Source of the DNA: Verrucomicrobiales bacterium
GTDB lineage: Bacteria; Verrucomicrobiota; Verrucomicrobiia; Limisphaerales; UBA9464
DNA: 32,601 nucleotides
Direction: 5' to 3'
Assembly (NCBI GenBank): GCA_005801385.1
Contig: SYEM01000191.1
Coordinates: 1 to 32,601 of the forward strand
The notes below the pieces were generated by a model. That model saw nothing but the letters and a program-made list of their open reading frames with translations. It had not been told where the DNA came from and did not search any database. Shown here piece by piece: positions 3,273 to 8,484 of the stretch (its first letter is position 1; each line of letters opens with the position of its first letter). The translations under genes and the position numbers were made by a program.

Positions 3273-3784
3273 GACGTGGCAGGCGGCTGGGGTTTCGACG
3301 GCGGCGGAGGAGGGATCGGGGGTTTGGCCTTCTTCCACGGCATGTCGGGGAATTTTTCGGGCAGCTTGAACGCCTGGGGCTTCGGACCCGCCATCTTGAG
3401 CTCGTCCTCGGCAGCCACGGAGGTCGGGGCCGTCGGGGTGGTCCCCGCCGCAGGCGGCGCGGTCATGTCCTGCTTCCACGAGGCGATGCGGGCCTGAAGT
3501 CCATGATGCTCCGCCGTCTTCTTGTCGCCCGACTTCATGTAGAAGAGCGACAGGTTCGTGTGGACCAGCTGCTCATGGGGTCGGAGCTTCTCGGCCCGGT
3601 GCCCGTCCTCGATCGCCCGCCCGTAGTCCCCCTTGCGGTAGTGGCACATCGCAATGCCGAGCCGGGCATCGAAGTGGTCCGGCGACCGATTCAGGATTCC
3701 CTCGAGCCTCTCAATGGCCCCATCGAAGTTGCCCGTCGAGTACTCGAACATCGCGTCGTCGTAGTCTGCCTGGAACTCATCCAC
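3269..3784 (-). CDS. Tetratricopeptide-repeat protein with Pro-rich C-terminus
   Basis: GTG start at 3784; AMFEYSTGNFDGAIERLEGILNRSPDHFDARLGIAMCHYRKGDYGRAIEDGHRAEKLRPHEQLVHTNLSLFYMKSGDKKTAEHH shows TPR periodicity. Confidence 0.75.
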   Translation of the reverse strand: MDEFQADYDDAMFEYSTGNFDGAIERLEGILNRSPDHFDARLGIAMCHYRKGDYGRAIEDGHRAEKLRPHEQLVHTNLSLFYMKSGDKKTAEHHGLQARIASWKQDMTAPPAAGTTPTAPTSVAAEDELKMAGPKPQAFKLPEKFPDMPWKKAKPPIPPPPPSKPQPPATS

Positions 3785-3828
3785 GCGCCGAAGCTGGCCG
3801 CGATGCCGGGATCCGGCAAGCAGGCGAC

Positions 3829-4806
3829 TCAATGCACCGGCTTCAAAAACGGCCGTACCAACGCCGGCAGGATGTCCCGCTCGTGGGCGTGGCCCACGGT
3901 GAACACCACGAACACCCAGCGCCGCCCGTCCGCCGTCTCGACGTAGGCGGCATCGTGCCGGGTCTGGCTGGTCCAGCCCGCCTTCGACCACAGCCGGGAA
4001 CCCCGGAACGCCGAATCCCGCAGCGCGATCCCCACGAAGCCATGGGTCTGGTCCTCCGGGTCCTGGACCGGTCCGTGCACGTCCCGCTTCATCCAGTCCA
4101 GCATCTGAAGGGTCCGGGGACCCGACGCCGCCGTGCCGGTGACAATCTCGGTCAACAGCCGCGCCGTCGCCTCCGTGGTCAGGGTGTTCCGCTTCGGCTC
4201 GAATCGCTCGATGGCCTGCTTCTCCCGGCCGTAGGGTCCCTCGCACCAGGGCTTCTTGTTGGCGTTGATCCCGACATAGCCCCGCGCCTCGAAGAATCGG
4301 TTCACGGCATTCCGTCGGTCGAACCAGTCCTTCAGCTCCGGTTCCGATAGCTCCGGGCCGCTGGTGGTGCCGGTCAGGACATCGACGACCAGATGGGTCG
4401 CCTCGTTGGCGCTGTCGACGATCATGTCGCGGAGCGCCCGTTGAAGCTCAGGCGTGTCGCGGATCCGCCCCTCCTCCAGCGCCTGCTCGGCCGCCACGAG
4501 GTAGAAGAGCTTCACGACGCTGGCAGGGTAGATCGGGATCCCGCCTCGGTAGCTGCCCCACTGGGGACGGGACGGCTCCGAGAGGTCGACCACGGTCATG
4601 GCGATCTGGTCGCTCGACAGATTCCGGGGGGCGAATTCGAGCAGGGTCTGCTCCACGGCCCGTCCGACCCGGGCGTGGAGGACCGGCGAGGCCACCGCCT
4701 TGGGATGCCTGGCGAGGGTGGGAGTCGACGCGTCCTGTGCCGCGACGGTGCCGAGGATGACCAGGCCCAACACCCGACAGAGAACGATGGGCAGGCGTCG
4801 ATTCAT
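3829..4806 (-). CDS. Serine hydrolase, class A beta-lactamase-related, exported
   Basis: Signal peptide RRLPIVLCRVLGLVILGTVAAQ; SxxK motif in PASVVKLFYLVAAEQAL; SAN in DSANEATHLVVDVL; KAG in SKAGWTSQTRHDAAYVE. Confidence 0.8.
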   Translation of the reverse strand: MNRRLPIVLCRVLGLVILGTVAAQDASTPTLARHPKAVASPVLHARVGRAVEQTLLEFAPRNLSSDQIAMTVVDLSEPSRPQWGSYRGGIPIYPASVVKLFYLVAAEQALEEGRIRDTPELQRALRDMIVDSANEATHLVVDVLTGTTSGPELSEPELKDWFDRRNAVNRFFEARGYVGINANKKPWCEGPYGREKQAIERFEPKRNTLTTEATARLLTEIVTGTAASGPRTLQMLDWMKRDVHGPVQDPEDQTHGFVGIALRDSAFRGSRLWSKAGWTSQTRHDAAYVETADGRRWVFVVFTVGHAHERDILPALVRPFLKPVH

Positions 4807-5423
4807 AGGGTGGCCGAGGGCTCAGGATCGGATCCGGCCCGCGAAAGATCCGCCCGTTCCAGGAATCGGATGATGGTGTCGCCATGCCGGAGCTGTCGGC
4901 GTTCGTGCCACCGTGGGGTGAGATCCAGGGTGTCCCGCTTCGTGTGGCCCAGGACGAACAGGCCGGCGGGTTCGAGGAGCTCGGGGAGATCCGGGGCATC
5001 GAGCAGCCGCTGGGCCAACGAGTCCGATCGGCGTCCCACGTTCTTCTCGCCGTAGGGCGGGTCGGCAATGACGAGATCGAACCGACGCCCGGAGGCCCGA
5101 AGCTGGGGCAACGCCGTGAAGACATCCATCACCCGGAGTTCGATCGCCCCCGGCGGGAGTCCGGTCAGCTCGAGGTTCCTGCGATAGAAGCGGGCATGCT
5201 TCTCGGAACGCTCGACACTGACGAGCTGGCGCGCACCGCGGCTGAGGCATTCATGACCGAGGGCTCCGGTTCCCGAGAAGAGGTCCAGGACCCGCGCCTC
5301 GTCGACAAATCCACCCAGGGAATTGAAGACGGCCAGCTTGACCTTGTCGGGCATGGGCCGCACCCCGAGCCCCTCCGGCACCCGGACGATCCGTCCCGCC
5401 GCCTGTCCCCCAATGATGCGCAC
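4803..5423 (-). CDS. rsmD: 16S rRNA (guanine(966)-N(2))-methyltransferase RsmD
   Basis: RIIGGQAAGRIVRVPEGLGVRPMPDKVKLAVFNSLG, VLDLFSGTGALGHECLSRGA, DLVIADPPYG; GTG start at 5423; 4-bp overlap with downstream serine hydrolase. Confidence 0.92.
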   Translation of the reverse strand: MRIIGGQAAGRIVRVPEGLGVRPMPDKVKLAVFNSLGGFVDEARVLDLFSGTGALGHECLSRGARQLVSVERSEKHARFYRRNLELTGLPPGAIELRVMDVFTALPQLRASGRRFDLVIADPPYGEKNVGRRSDSLAQRLLDAPDLPELLEPAGLFVLGHTKRDTLDLTPRWHERRQLRHGDTIIRFLERADLSRAGSDPEPSATL

Positions 5424-5458
5424 GCCGCGAAGCTAGGCCACCCGGTGCCGTCGGGGAA
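5371..5458. repeat. 88-bp direct repeat, copy A (spans 5' end and leader of rsmD)
   Basis: ccctccggcacccggacgatccgtcccgccgcctgtcccccaatgatgcgcacgccgcgaagctaggccacccggtgccgtcggggaa; identical by eye to 6917-7004. Confidence 0.95.
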
Positions 5459-5529
5459 TCGCTTTGTACCAGACGTCGATTTATTGCGACGACTCTGCCC
5501 CCCATCTCCCTGATTCACGGGGCAGTGTT

Positions 5530-6780
5530 TCAGGCAGTGGGGGTTGCCCACAGATGCGAGATCGGCAGTCCGTGCATATTTGCCGCAAAAGGAATGACCT
5601 CGCTACCGGTGTACAGCACCACACCGCGAACCCATCTCCGACCCGCCGCGTTGGCCATCGACTGCAATCCCCGAACCTCCGAGCCGCCCAACGTCGCACC
5701 GGACTTGATTTCGATGCCGACCAATCGACCCGAGCTGTCTTCCAGGACAATGTCCACCTCCTGTCCCGAGGCTGTTCGCCAGAAATAGAATTCCGGCTGG
5801 GTTTCACTCCAGGCAGATTGTTTGCGCAATTCCATCAACACGAAGTTCTCCAGCACACCACCCGCCAGGGTGCCGTCCACATTCAACCGCTCGGGGGTCA
5901 ACCCCAGCAGATGCGCCAGCAGTCCGGTGTCGTCGAGATACACCTTCGGTGTCTGGATGACCCGCTGGCCGAGGTTGCTCGACCACGGACGCAGCAGCTG
6001 AACGAGGAACGTCGCTTCGAGCAGCGCGAAGTAGCGCTTCAGCGTGGTCTGTGGAAGCGCCAGTGAGCGCGACAGATCAGCGAAATTCAACAAGCAGCCC
6101 GCTCGAGAGGCCACCACGGACATCAGGCGCGGCACGGCCGTCACGTCGGCGACATGGGTGAGGTCGCGAATGTCGCGCTGGAGGACGGTCGTTAGGTAGG
6201 ACTGGAACCATGCCTTGCGGCGGGCCACAAGTCTTCGAGCGATCGCCGGCGGATACCCGCCTGACCGGACTTTTTCGAACAGCTCATCGCGGTCGAGGTG
6301 CATGCTTTTTCCGGATGCCCAGACCGGCTGCTTTGAAAACAGGGCGTCCACGAATCCCTCTTGGGCGCCATTGATTTCGCCCTGCGAGAACGGCCAGAGG
6401 GTCAACACCTCCAAGCGACCCGCCAACGATTCGGACAACTTTGGCAACAGCAACACATTCGCCGAGCCGGTGAGCAGAAAACGTCCCGGCTCACGCTTAC
6501 GGTCGATCGCCATCTTGATGGCCCTGAAAAGTTCTGGGACGTGCTGGACTTCATCCAGCGTCACCGGTGCGGTCAGACCCGCGATAAACCCATTGGGGTC
6601 CCGCTTCGCCGCCGCCAGAACTCCGGGGTCGTCAAAGGTCAGATAGCGACGACCTTGCTTCTCGAATTCAGGCAGCTGGGCCAAAGTGCTCTTGCCGGTC
6701 TGACGCGCACCGTTGATCAGGACGGCAGGTGTGTCCTGCAACGCCTGCAGGAGTCGCTCCGTGAGATGGCGGTGAATCAC
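5530..6780 (-). CDS. AAA (AAA_14) ATPase with DUF4143 C-terminal domain
   Basis: Walker A VLINGARQTGKST; TFDDPGVLAAAKRDP; DEVQHVPELFRAIKMAID; LLTGSANVLLLPKLSESLAGRLEVLTLWPFSQGE; C-terminal YFWRTASGQEVDIVLEDSSGRLVGIEIKSGATLGGSEVRGL. GTG at 6780 (VIHRHLTERLL) preferred over the upstream extension. Confidence 0.9.
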   Translation of the reverse strand: MIHRHLTERLLQALQDTPAVLINGARQTGKSTLAQLPEFEKQGRRYLTFDDPGVLAAAKRDPNGFIAGLTAPVTLDEVQHVPELFRAIKMAIDRKREPGRFLLTGSANVLLLPKLSESLAGRLEVLTLWPFSQGEINGAQEGFVDALFSKQPVWASGKSMHLDRDELFEKVRSGGYPPAIARRLVARRKAWFQSYLTTVLQRDIRDLTHVADVTAVPRLMSVVASRAGCLLNFADLSRSLALPQTTLKRYFALLEATFLVQLLRPWSSNLGQRVIQTPKVYLDDTGLLAHLLGLTPERLNVDGTLAGGVLENFVLMELRKQSAWSETQPEFYFWRTASGQEVDIVLEDSSGRLVGIEIKSGATLGGSEVRGLQSMANAAGRRWVRGVVLYTGSEVIPFAANMHGLPISHLWATPTA

Positions 6781-6785
6781 GAGTG

Positions 6786-6819
6786 GATTATCAACCAGTG
6801 TTTGGATGATAATCAACCA
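6786..6819. promoter_or_regulatory. Possible operator: gattatcaacca-N10-gataatcaacca
   Basis: Two 12-mers differing at one base, whose first 7 bases (gattatc/gataatc) are also reverse complements of each other, directly upstream of the AAA/DUF4143 GTG start; AT-rich island in GC-rich sequence. Confidence 0.35.
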
Positions 6820-6916
6820 CTTGTGGACTGAAAAGCCCGCTGGAGAGCCGGGCTGAAACACGATGCAAGTTCAAGGCTCGGTTCCGATGTGAGGGTCGCC
6901 ATGCACTTGTAGCGAG

Positions 6917-7004
6917 CCCTCCGGCACCCGGACGATCCGTCCCGCCGCCTGTCCCCCAATGATGCGCACGCCGCGAAGCTAGGCCACCCGGTGCCGTCGG
7001 GGAA
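6917..7004. repeat. 88-bp direct repeat, copy B (orphan rsmD 5' stub upstream of the AAA gene)
   Basis: Perfect match to 5371-5458; on minus strand it encodes VRIIGGQAAGRIVRVPEG then diverges and soon stops. Confidence 0.95.
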
Positions 7005-7028
7005 CCGGTTTGTCGTGGTGGCCTACCC

Positions 7029-7361
7029 TCAATGTCCGGCGGTGCCCGGAGCACCGTGCAGGAGGACGGCCCCCGCGATGATGAGGACGAGTCCCAGGCC
7101 CTTGGTCCAGGTGACGCTTTCCCCGAAGACCAGCACTCCGAGCACCGCGATGACGGCGGTGCCCAGTCCCGACCACAGCGCATAGGCCACCCCCACCTCC
7201 AGGGTCTTGAGGCACAGGGACAGCAGCCCGAACGCCGAGAGATAGGAGACCCCCACACCCACCACCGGCCACGGACGGGTCATCCCCTGGCTGAGCTTGA
7301 GACAGGTCGTGCCAAGGACCTCGAGCAGGATGGCGGCGATCAGGAGGAACCACGCATTCAT
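7029..7361 (-). CDS. Small multidrug resistance (SMR/EmrE-SugE-like) transporter
   Basis: 110 aa: MNAWFLLIAAILLEVLGTTCLKLSQGMTRPWPVVGVGVSYLSAFGLLSLCLKTLEVGVAYALWSGLGTAVIAVLGVLVFGESVTWTKGLGLVLIIAGAVLLHGAPG; conserved Glu in TM1 and AYALWSGLGT motif. Confidence 0.92.
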   Translation of the reverse strand: MNAWFLLIAAILLEVLGTTCLKLSQGMTRPWPVVGVGVSYLSAFGLLSLCLKTLEVGVAYALWSGLGTAVIAVLGVLVFGESVTWTKGLGLVLIIAGAVLLHGAPGTAGH

Positions 7362-7491
7362 GGGAGGCATCGTGCCGTCCGGACCTGTCGTGAACCATCC
7401 GGATCTGCCATGGCGGCCTTCAATGGGTTCAACCCGCAAGGTGCAAGGACTAACGGTTGACCCTTGTGGAGCCGGATCGCCATATTGCGGC

Positions 7492-8484
7492 ATGATCCCG
7501 GCGGCAGTCCCGAACCCTCTCCGCGCCATAATGGTGGCCGTTGTCCTCGCGGTCGGGCTCACGGGTTGCGCAACGGCCGAACCCCAACCGCGGGTCCGGG
7601 TCTACGAGACCAACGAGGTGGTCCGGGTCGACCTCGATGGCCGCCTCTTCACCCAATACCACTTCCGCGACGTCTCACGTCCGTTCCTCTATCCGATCCT
7701 GACCGCCGACAACCGGCACATGACCCGTCGCTGGCCGCAGGAGGAAATCGCCGGCGAGGAGCGGGATCACCCCCATCACAAGGGCCTCTGGTGGTCCCAT
7801 GGCGACGCGAATGGGGTGGACTTCTGGTCGGAATCCAAGGACGCCGGCCGCACCGTCCACCAGTCCTTTGCCGAGATCGCCTCGGGCAACGAGTCGGGGG
7901 GGATCACCTCGCGCAACCGGTGGATCGCAAAGGACGGCAAGATCATCGCTTCCGACGAGCGGACGATGCGCTTCCATGCGCCGAAGGGCGACCCGCGGTG
8001 GATCGACTTCACGATCACGATCTTCGCCAGCCACGGCGACCTCGTCCTCGGTGACACCAAGGAAGGCACGATGGCCCTGCGCATCGCCGAGTCCATGCGT
8101 CTGAAACAGCCCAAGGGCGTCGCCGGGCAGGGCCACATCGAGAATTCCGAGGGCGTGAAGGACGGGGCCACCTGGGGCAAGCGGGCAGCGTGGGTCGACT
8201 ACACCGGACCCGTGGACGGCAAGACGGTCGGGGTCGCGATCCTGGACCATCCCGCGAACCCGAGGTTCCCGACGTGGTGGCATGTCCGGGACTACGGCCT
8301 GTTCGCCGCGAATCCCTTCGGTGTCCACGACTTCGAGAAGAAGGACAAGGGCACCGGCAATCTGACGATTCCTGCCGGGAAGTCGGCGACGTTCCGGTAC
8401 CGCTTCATCTTCCACCCGGGCGACACGACCAGCGCCCACCTCACCGAGGCGTTCCAGAACTGGTCCGCTCCTCAGAAACCCTGA
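7492..8484 (+). CDS. PmoA-like (DUF6807) lipoprotein
   Basis: Start at 7492 (MIPAAVPNPLRAIMVAVVLAVGLTGCATA, lipobox LTGC); RDHPHHKGLWWSHGDANGVDFWSE, AAWVDYTGPVDGKTVGVAILDHPANPRFPTWWHVRDYGLFAANPFG. Confidence 0.85.
   Translation: MIPAAVPNPLRAIMVAVVLAVGLTGCATAEPQPRVRVYETNEVVRVDLDGRLFTQYHFRDVSRPFLYPILTADNRHMTRRWPQEEIAGEERDHPHHKGLWWSHGDANGVDFWSESKDAGRTVHQSFAEIASGNESGGITSRNRWIAKDGKIIASDERTMRFHAPKGDPRWIDFTITIFASHGDLVLGDTKEGTMALRIAESMRLKQPKGVAGQGHIENSEGVKDGATWGKRAAWVDYTGPVDGKTVGVAILDHPANPRFPTWWHVRDYGLFAANPFGVHDFEKKDKGTGNLTIPAGKSATFRYRFIFHPGDTTSAHLTEAFQNWSAPQKP

What the first reader, a model, noticed from the sequence alone, without database searches (positions are those of the whole stretch)
5371..7004. 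AAA/DUF4143 gene inserted at the rsmD 5' end and bracketed by 88-bp perfect direct repeats
The 88 bp at 5371-5458 (rsmD codons 1-18 plus 35 bp of leader) recur exactly at 6917-7004, and similarity continues a few bases more (tcgctttgt vs ccggtttgt). Between them lies only the AAA/DUF4143 gene and flanks (about 1.46 kb), with no transposase or integrase. The distal copy is an orphan rsmD start (VRIIGGQAAGRIVRVPEG then divergence and stop). Inferred ancestral state: SMR stop, ~60 bp, rsmD start. The repeat is far longer than a typical transposon target duplication, so Campbell-type integration of a circle carrying rsmD 5' homology, or duplication with insertion, is more likely. The insert preserves an intact rsmD start, as integrative elements targeting housekeeping genes often do.
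Basis: partly seen in the sequence, partly recalled or inferred. Interest (0 to 1): 0.7.

Follow-up and report, generated by a model that had tools for sequence, protein, structure and literature searches.

The report
Defence-like gene inserted with target duplication
A single ATPase-nuclease gene of a very common, untested phage-defence candidate family has inserted next to a housekeeping gene, leaving the local DNA duplicated on both sides without any transposase, and the same pattern recurs around its relatives and other defence-like genes, which suggests an unexplained way for such genes to move.

Summary
The 88 bp at 5371-5458 recur without mismatch at 6917-7004 (95/97 to 5467/7013) and bracket one AAA_14+DUF4143 gene, with no transposase or integrase between. 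A sister species (about 92-93% nucleotide identity) has the empty site: one repeat copy, no insert, collinear flanks. Both window copies share states absent from the empty site, so the duplicated DNA is the host lineage's own. No other rsmD locus examined in the family carries the gene. The protein matches PDC-S01, a widespread but untested phage-defence candidate (ATPase plus PD-(D/E)XK). [quoted passage not shown] It recurs: a PALP-gene 3' end, a metallophosphatase 3' end (three copies around two DUF4143 genes), hsdR and peptidase gene ends, and a nested cluster of three DUF4143 genes. hipBA and Fic genes also show it, so it is not specific to DUF4143. Some repeat-bracketed cases proved to be dispersed repeats; under strict counting the enrichment is marginal (p=0.05). 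Relatives conserve only the gene and a 16-bp operator, not element ends. Ku is absent, which disfavours end joining. The molecular mechanism is inferred, not shown.

The parts
4803..5423 (-). rsmD-type 16S rRNA methyltransferase gene (target, intact)
   Evidence: PF03602 E=4e-37; 97% aa identity to G002 copy
5371..5467 (.). Repeat copy R: rsmD 5' end + leader, joined to intact rsmD (88 bp exact to 5458, then 7/9)
5468..6916 (.). Inserted DNA, 1449 bp, absent from G002
   Evidence: empty site L036
5530..6861 (-). AAA_14 + DUF4143 ATPase/PD-(D/E)XK-type gene (PDC-S01); probable start GTG at 6780
   Evidence: Pfam, PADLOC PDC-S01 E=2e-160, conserved D, ExK, model pLDDT 82.8
6792..6819 (-). Operator-like element TGGTTGATTATCATCC-N6-TGGTTG upstream of the start, invariant core in relatives
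6917..7013 (.). Repeat copy R': orphan rsmD 5' end + leader, joined to the SMR flank
7029..7562 (-). SMR-family transporter ORF, flank on the far side of the insertion
   Evidence: PF00893 E=2e-25; collinear in G002

Best explanation
This is a single-gene insertion with long target duplication. Shown: in the lineage of this Verrucomicrobiota genome a 1.45-kb piece carrying one PDC-S01 gene and its promoter entered the SMR-rsmD junction, and about 88-97 bp of local DNA now stands on both sides, leaving rsmD intact. Inferred: no transposase was involved. The insert probably went in at a repaired break or stalled fork, where staggered ends were filled in, or the growing strand switched to a foreign fragment through a few matching bases and returned about 90 bp upstream. 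The gene is kept because it is selfish or useful (defence or toxin-like). Once bracketed, repeats of this kind can recombine by RecA, so cassettes could be lost, moved and stacked at the same gene end.
For: Empty site in G002 with a single repeat copy. R and R' share bases that differ from G002. No DUF4143 near rsmD in the other family loci searched. No IR pair at the insert ends, and no conserved element ends: similarity to 85%-identical relatives stops near the stop codon and about 40 bp upstream of the start. Mismatches of R/R' sit only at the two edges, with short matches CGAG and TTTGT there. Recurrence: 15/77 DUF4143 genes bracketed vs 2/91 random ORFs (p=2e-4), and 8/80 vs 4/240 in named genomes (p=0.002). 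Clear gene-end duplications at L004, L219 (three copies), L129, L147 and L413.
Against: Only one clean empty site was found. Precise excision in G002 by repeat recombination is not excluded, since SMR-rsmD linkage occurs only in these two genomes. Some bracketed cases (L006, L236, L243, L248, L250) are dispersed repeats, and with strict counting 7/77 vs 2/91 gives only p=0.05. hipA genes are bracketed as often (5/24), so nothing is DUF4143-specific. The template-switch or staggered-break step is not directly tested.
Confidence: 0.68

Rival explanations
1. RecA-dependent transfer: a circle or fragment carrying the PDC-S01 gene plus rsmD 5' homology, from a strain already bearing it there, recombined with resident rsmD (Campbell integration or homology-facilitated illegitimate recombination).
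For: Stacked arrays with different cargo at one gene end (L219 three copies; L413; homologous target with Fic in L412). L004 copies are 81% identical with third-position bias 9/9/26 and no gaps, as if two functional gene ends had met.
Against: R and R' in the window are identical and share lineage-specific bases, so the donor must be conspecific. It needs a prior insertion and does not explain the first event. Third-position bias is also expected if only R is under selection. In L265, R and R' are each other's closest relatives.
Confidence: 0.25
2. Site-specific integrative element remnant (IME/CIME-like): attL/attR are the repeats and the integrase acts in trans or was lost.
For: Gene-end targets that stay intact, long repeats and tandem accretion resemble CIMEs (own knowledge); stacking seen.
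Against: Each case uses a different gene, at a 5' or a 3' end, with repeats of 42-499 bp; no integrase in the insert; no shared att core was seen.
Confidence: 0.05
3. End-joining capture: a staggered break repaired by Ku/LigD with foreign DNA as filler.
For: Fill-in of staggered ends would give duplications of variable length and no fixed insert ends, as seen.
Against: Ku found in 2 of 50 family genomes and in none of G000-G003, G010, G057, G047; G000 is only 80% complete.
Confidence: 0.05

Closest known systems
Insertion with long target duplication of restriction-modification genes (Nobusato et al. 2000 and Furuta et al. 2010, as cited in PMC3874152, PMC3031569 and PMC1643837)
   Same: Gene(s) inserted relative to a sister genome, duplicated target of the order of 100 bp and variable, no linked transposase; [quoted passage not shown]
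   Different: Cargo is one ATPase-nuclease gene without a methyltransferase, in Verrucomicrobiota and other phyla; gene ends are reused and stacked. The original 2000 and 2010 papers were not read.
PDC-S01 phage-defence candidate (PADLOC)
   Same: HMM match E=2e-160; ATPase + PD-(D/E)XK architecture as described in PMC12988326
   Different: No mobility mode was found described in the papers searched; antiphage activity is untested
ICE/IME/CIME accretion at gene ends (own knowledge)
   Same: Target gene kept intact, repeats at both ends, tandem stacking
   Different: No integrase, no common site, insert is a bare gene
PABY2304 Walker-type ATPase of Pyrococcus abyssi (PDB 2qen)
   Same: Best fold match, E=5e-7, TMq 0.40
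   Different: 15% identity, no close solved relative by sequence

Membership tests
Insertion with long target duplication | Related genome with an empty, single-copy target | tested here: met
   L036 of G002
Insertion with long target duplication | Duplication of the order of 100 bp, variable between cases | tested here: met
   97 bp here; 42-499 bp elsewhere
Insertion with long target duplication | Cargo is a restriction-modification gene (as published) | tested here: not met
   AAA_14+DUF4143 gene only
PDC-S01 | Profile match to the PADLOC PDC-S01 models | tested here: met
   E=2.1e-160, residues 28-440
PDC-S01 | Antiphage activity | not testable with these tools
   No wet-lab assay; validation described as pending for most PDCs
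PDC-S01 | PD-(D/E)XK catalytic residues | tested here: met
   Invariant D370, E384, K386 in the 14-sequence alignment; catalysis not tested
Transposon / IS | Transposase, terminal inverted repeats, short target duplication | tested here: not met
   No second gene in the insert, no IR pair at the ends, 88-97 bp duplication
Site-specific integrative element | Integrase and a common attachment site | tested here: not met
   No integrase in the insert; targets differ between cases
NHEJ filler insertion | Ku in the genome | tested here: not met
   Ku absent in G000 and most of the family; the MAG is incomplete

The most novel reading that the evidence does not exclude
PDC-S01 genes are minimal autonomous mobile genes: the ATPase-PD-(D/E)XK protein itself makes widely spaced cuts at gene ends and drives insertion of its own gene plus operator, leaving long target duplications, so one of the commonest defence candidates in prokaryotes is a one-gene mobile element.
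Probability: 0.1. Interest if true: 0.88.

Novelty: new variant of a known kind. Interest (0 to 1): 0.58.

Why it matters
PDC-S01 is reported as the fourth most common defence candidate in prokaryotes (PMC12988326), yet its function is untested and no account of its mobility was found in the papers searched. Here it appears as a bare gene that enters genomes with long target duplication, as restriction-modification genes do, and hipBA and Fic genes in the same family show the same footprint. That links defence and addiction genes by a shared, unexplained mode of gene mobility and supplies datable insertions, an empty site and an operator that can be tested.

Tried and rejected
Counting every repeat-bracketed DUF4143 gene as a target duplication: rejected, because L006, L236, L248, L250 and the hipA locus L275 carry multi-copy dispersed or arrayed repeats and L243's flank does not fit. 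L169 dropped because its repeat is an isolated internal fragment of an ATPase gene; L131 left ambiguous. DUF4143 specificity: rejected, hipA 5/24. End joining by Ku: disfavoured. Element with fixed ends: rejected. A second empty site was sought for L243 and L219 and not found. hipBA at L265 seemed a clean recent insertion, but hipBA lies at the same locus in relatives, so it is older and its repeats may have been homogenised. Viral contigs hold no exact copy of the operator pattern used. The unbiased scan of 456 kb gave 7 local repeats, mostly within genes or between paralogues.

Full report
OBSERVATION. The repeat is as described. Bases 5371-5458 and 6917-7004 are identical over 88 bp, and 95/97 if extended to 5467/7013. 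It accounts for nearly all exact repeats of 16 bp or more in the window. The left copy is the start of rsmD with 35 bp of leader; the right copy is an orphan joined to the SMR flank. Between them lies one gene, 5530-6861(-), with AAA_14 and DUF4143. Relatives start at the equivalent of residue 28, so the start is probably GTG at 6780.

EMPTY SITE. The window lies in G000 (contig C154), an incomplete MAG. The sister species G002 has rsmD at 97% amino-acid identity. Its locus L036 matches window 3314-5467 at 93.5% and window 6913-8467 at 92.0%, and the two matches overlap in one repeat copy. G002 therefore has SMR-R-rsmD without the gene. In the leader part of the repeat both window copies carry the same bases where G002 differs, so the duplicated DNA belongs to the window's own lineage. 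Past the exact 88 bp, R differs from R' at two bases; there R' and G002 agree, and the opposite edge has a one-base offset. All differences thus sit at the edges, beside short matches (TTTGT, CGAG), as expected if junctions formed at a few matching bases; this is suggestive only. None of the other family loci searched around rsmD (L037-L049, L099-L101) holds a DUF4143 gene, which favours insertion in G000 over excision in G002, but SMR-rsmD linkage is limited to these two genomes.

THE GENE. The protein matches PADLOC PDC-S01 (E=2e-160). PMC12988326 describes PDC-S01 as the fourth most common defence across prokaryotes, an ATPase fused to a PD-(D/E)XK member, with experimental validation pending for most candidates of this kind. 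The 14-protein alignment keeps Walker residues and D370, E384, K386. The model has mean pLDDT 82.8; its best solved fold match is the Pyrococcus ATPase 2qen. No PDB sequence match was found.

RECURRENCE. G000 holds seven DUF4143 genes; three are repeat-bracketed. In the family 15 of 77 testable DUF4143 genes are bracketed, against 2 of 91 random ORFs (p=2e-4). In named genomes from many phyla it is 8 of 80 against 4 of 240 (p=0.002). A sample of 456 kb of G000 and G010 gave only 7 local repeats of suitable size, mostly inside genes or between paralogues.

A genome-wide check showed that several bracketing repeats are dispersed (L006, L236, L248, L250), and L243's flank does not fit a target duplication. 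Counting only locus-unique repeats gives 7/77 (p=0.05). Strong gene-end cases remain: L004, 3' end of a PALP-family gene, 234 bp, 81%; L219, three copies of the 3' end of a metallophosphatase gene around two different DUF4143 genes; L129, hsdR start; L147, last codons of a peptidase gene; L413, three DUF4143 genes nested in repeats of 499, 254 and 78 bp, the first being the 3' end of the neighbouring gene with a frameshifted orphan.

NOT SPECIFIC TO DUF4143. hipA genes are bracketed in 5 of 24 cases, some by dispersed repeats. L265 is a hipBA module bracketed by 276 bp of a DUF1501 gene's 3' end, although hipBA is older at that locus. L412 is a Fic gene bracketed by 314 bp, part of which is homologous to a repeat in L413 of another species. 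The footprint belongs to a class of accessory, addiction- or defence-like genes.

MECHANISM. Shown: difference by an insert relative to a sister species, local duplication, no recombinase in the insert. Shown for relatives: similarity covers the gene and about 40 bp upstream, then stops. The upstream part contains TGGTTGATTATCATCC, identical in independent loci of Verrucomicrobia, Acidobacteria and an Omnitrophota MAG while the flanks do not align. In L112 it is not in frame with the gene (read from the alignment), so it acts as DNA, probably an operator. There are no fixed ends of the kind a transposase needs. Ku is absent from G000 and 47 other genomes of the 50 searched, so classical end joining is unlikely. 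I favour capture at a staggered break or stalled fork, with fill-in or template switching; this step is inference. Stacked arrays suggest that bracketed genes then spread and accumulate by homologous recombination. Codon-position patterns (L004 9/9/26, L265 3/2/9) fit either an old duplicate or a meeting of diverged gene ends and do not decide.

COMPARISON. [quoted passage not shown] PMC3031569; PMC3874152). The structural features are met here; the restriction-modification cargo is not. In the held library DUF4143 occurs in one paper and PDC-S01 in three, so I found no earlier report of this behaviour, within the limits of that library; of the original papers the 2010 one is not held and the 2000 one was not read.

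VERDICT. A real and probably recent insertion with long target duplication, carrying a new cargo class.

Noticed in passing
window 6792-6819(-): TGGTTGATTATCATCC-N6-TGGTTG upstream of the DUF4143 start; the 16-bp core is a near-palindrome, invariant in relatives from Verrucomicrobia, Acidobacteria and Omnitrophota.
   Followed up: partly
L413 2516-9528 (G010:C28): Three different DUF4143 genes stacked in nested direct repeats at the 3' end of one gene.
   Followed up: partly
L412 629-2117 (G058:C268): Fic-family gene bracketed by 314-bp repeats resembling a Zn-ribbon gene 3' end; part of the repeat is homologous to one in L413.
   Followed up: partly
L096 5531-6867 (G002:C7): The PALP-family gene 3' end recurs beyond a pseudopilin-like gene, so that gene end seems to have received more than one insertion; the DUF4143 gene there is reduced to remnants.
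   Followed up: partly
L006 1128-1293 (G000:C292): GC-rich palindromic intergenic repeat (GTGCCGCAGTGCCCTGCGGCACTGGGTGCGACAGCACCCACC) with many copies in G000.
   Followed up: no
L033 / L031 (G001:C137 / G001:C183): Two halves of one DUF4143 gene on separate contigs, probably one gene split by assembly.
   Followed up: no
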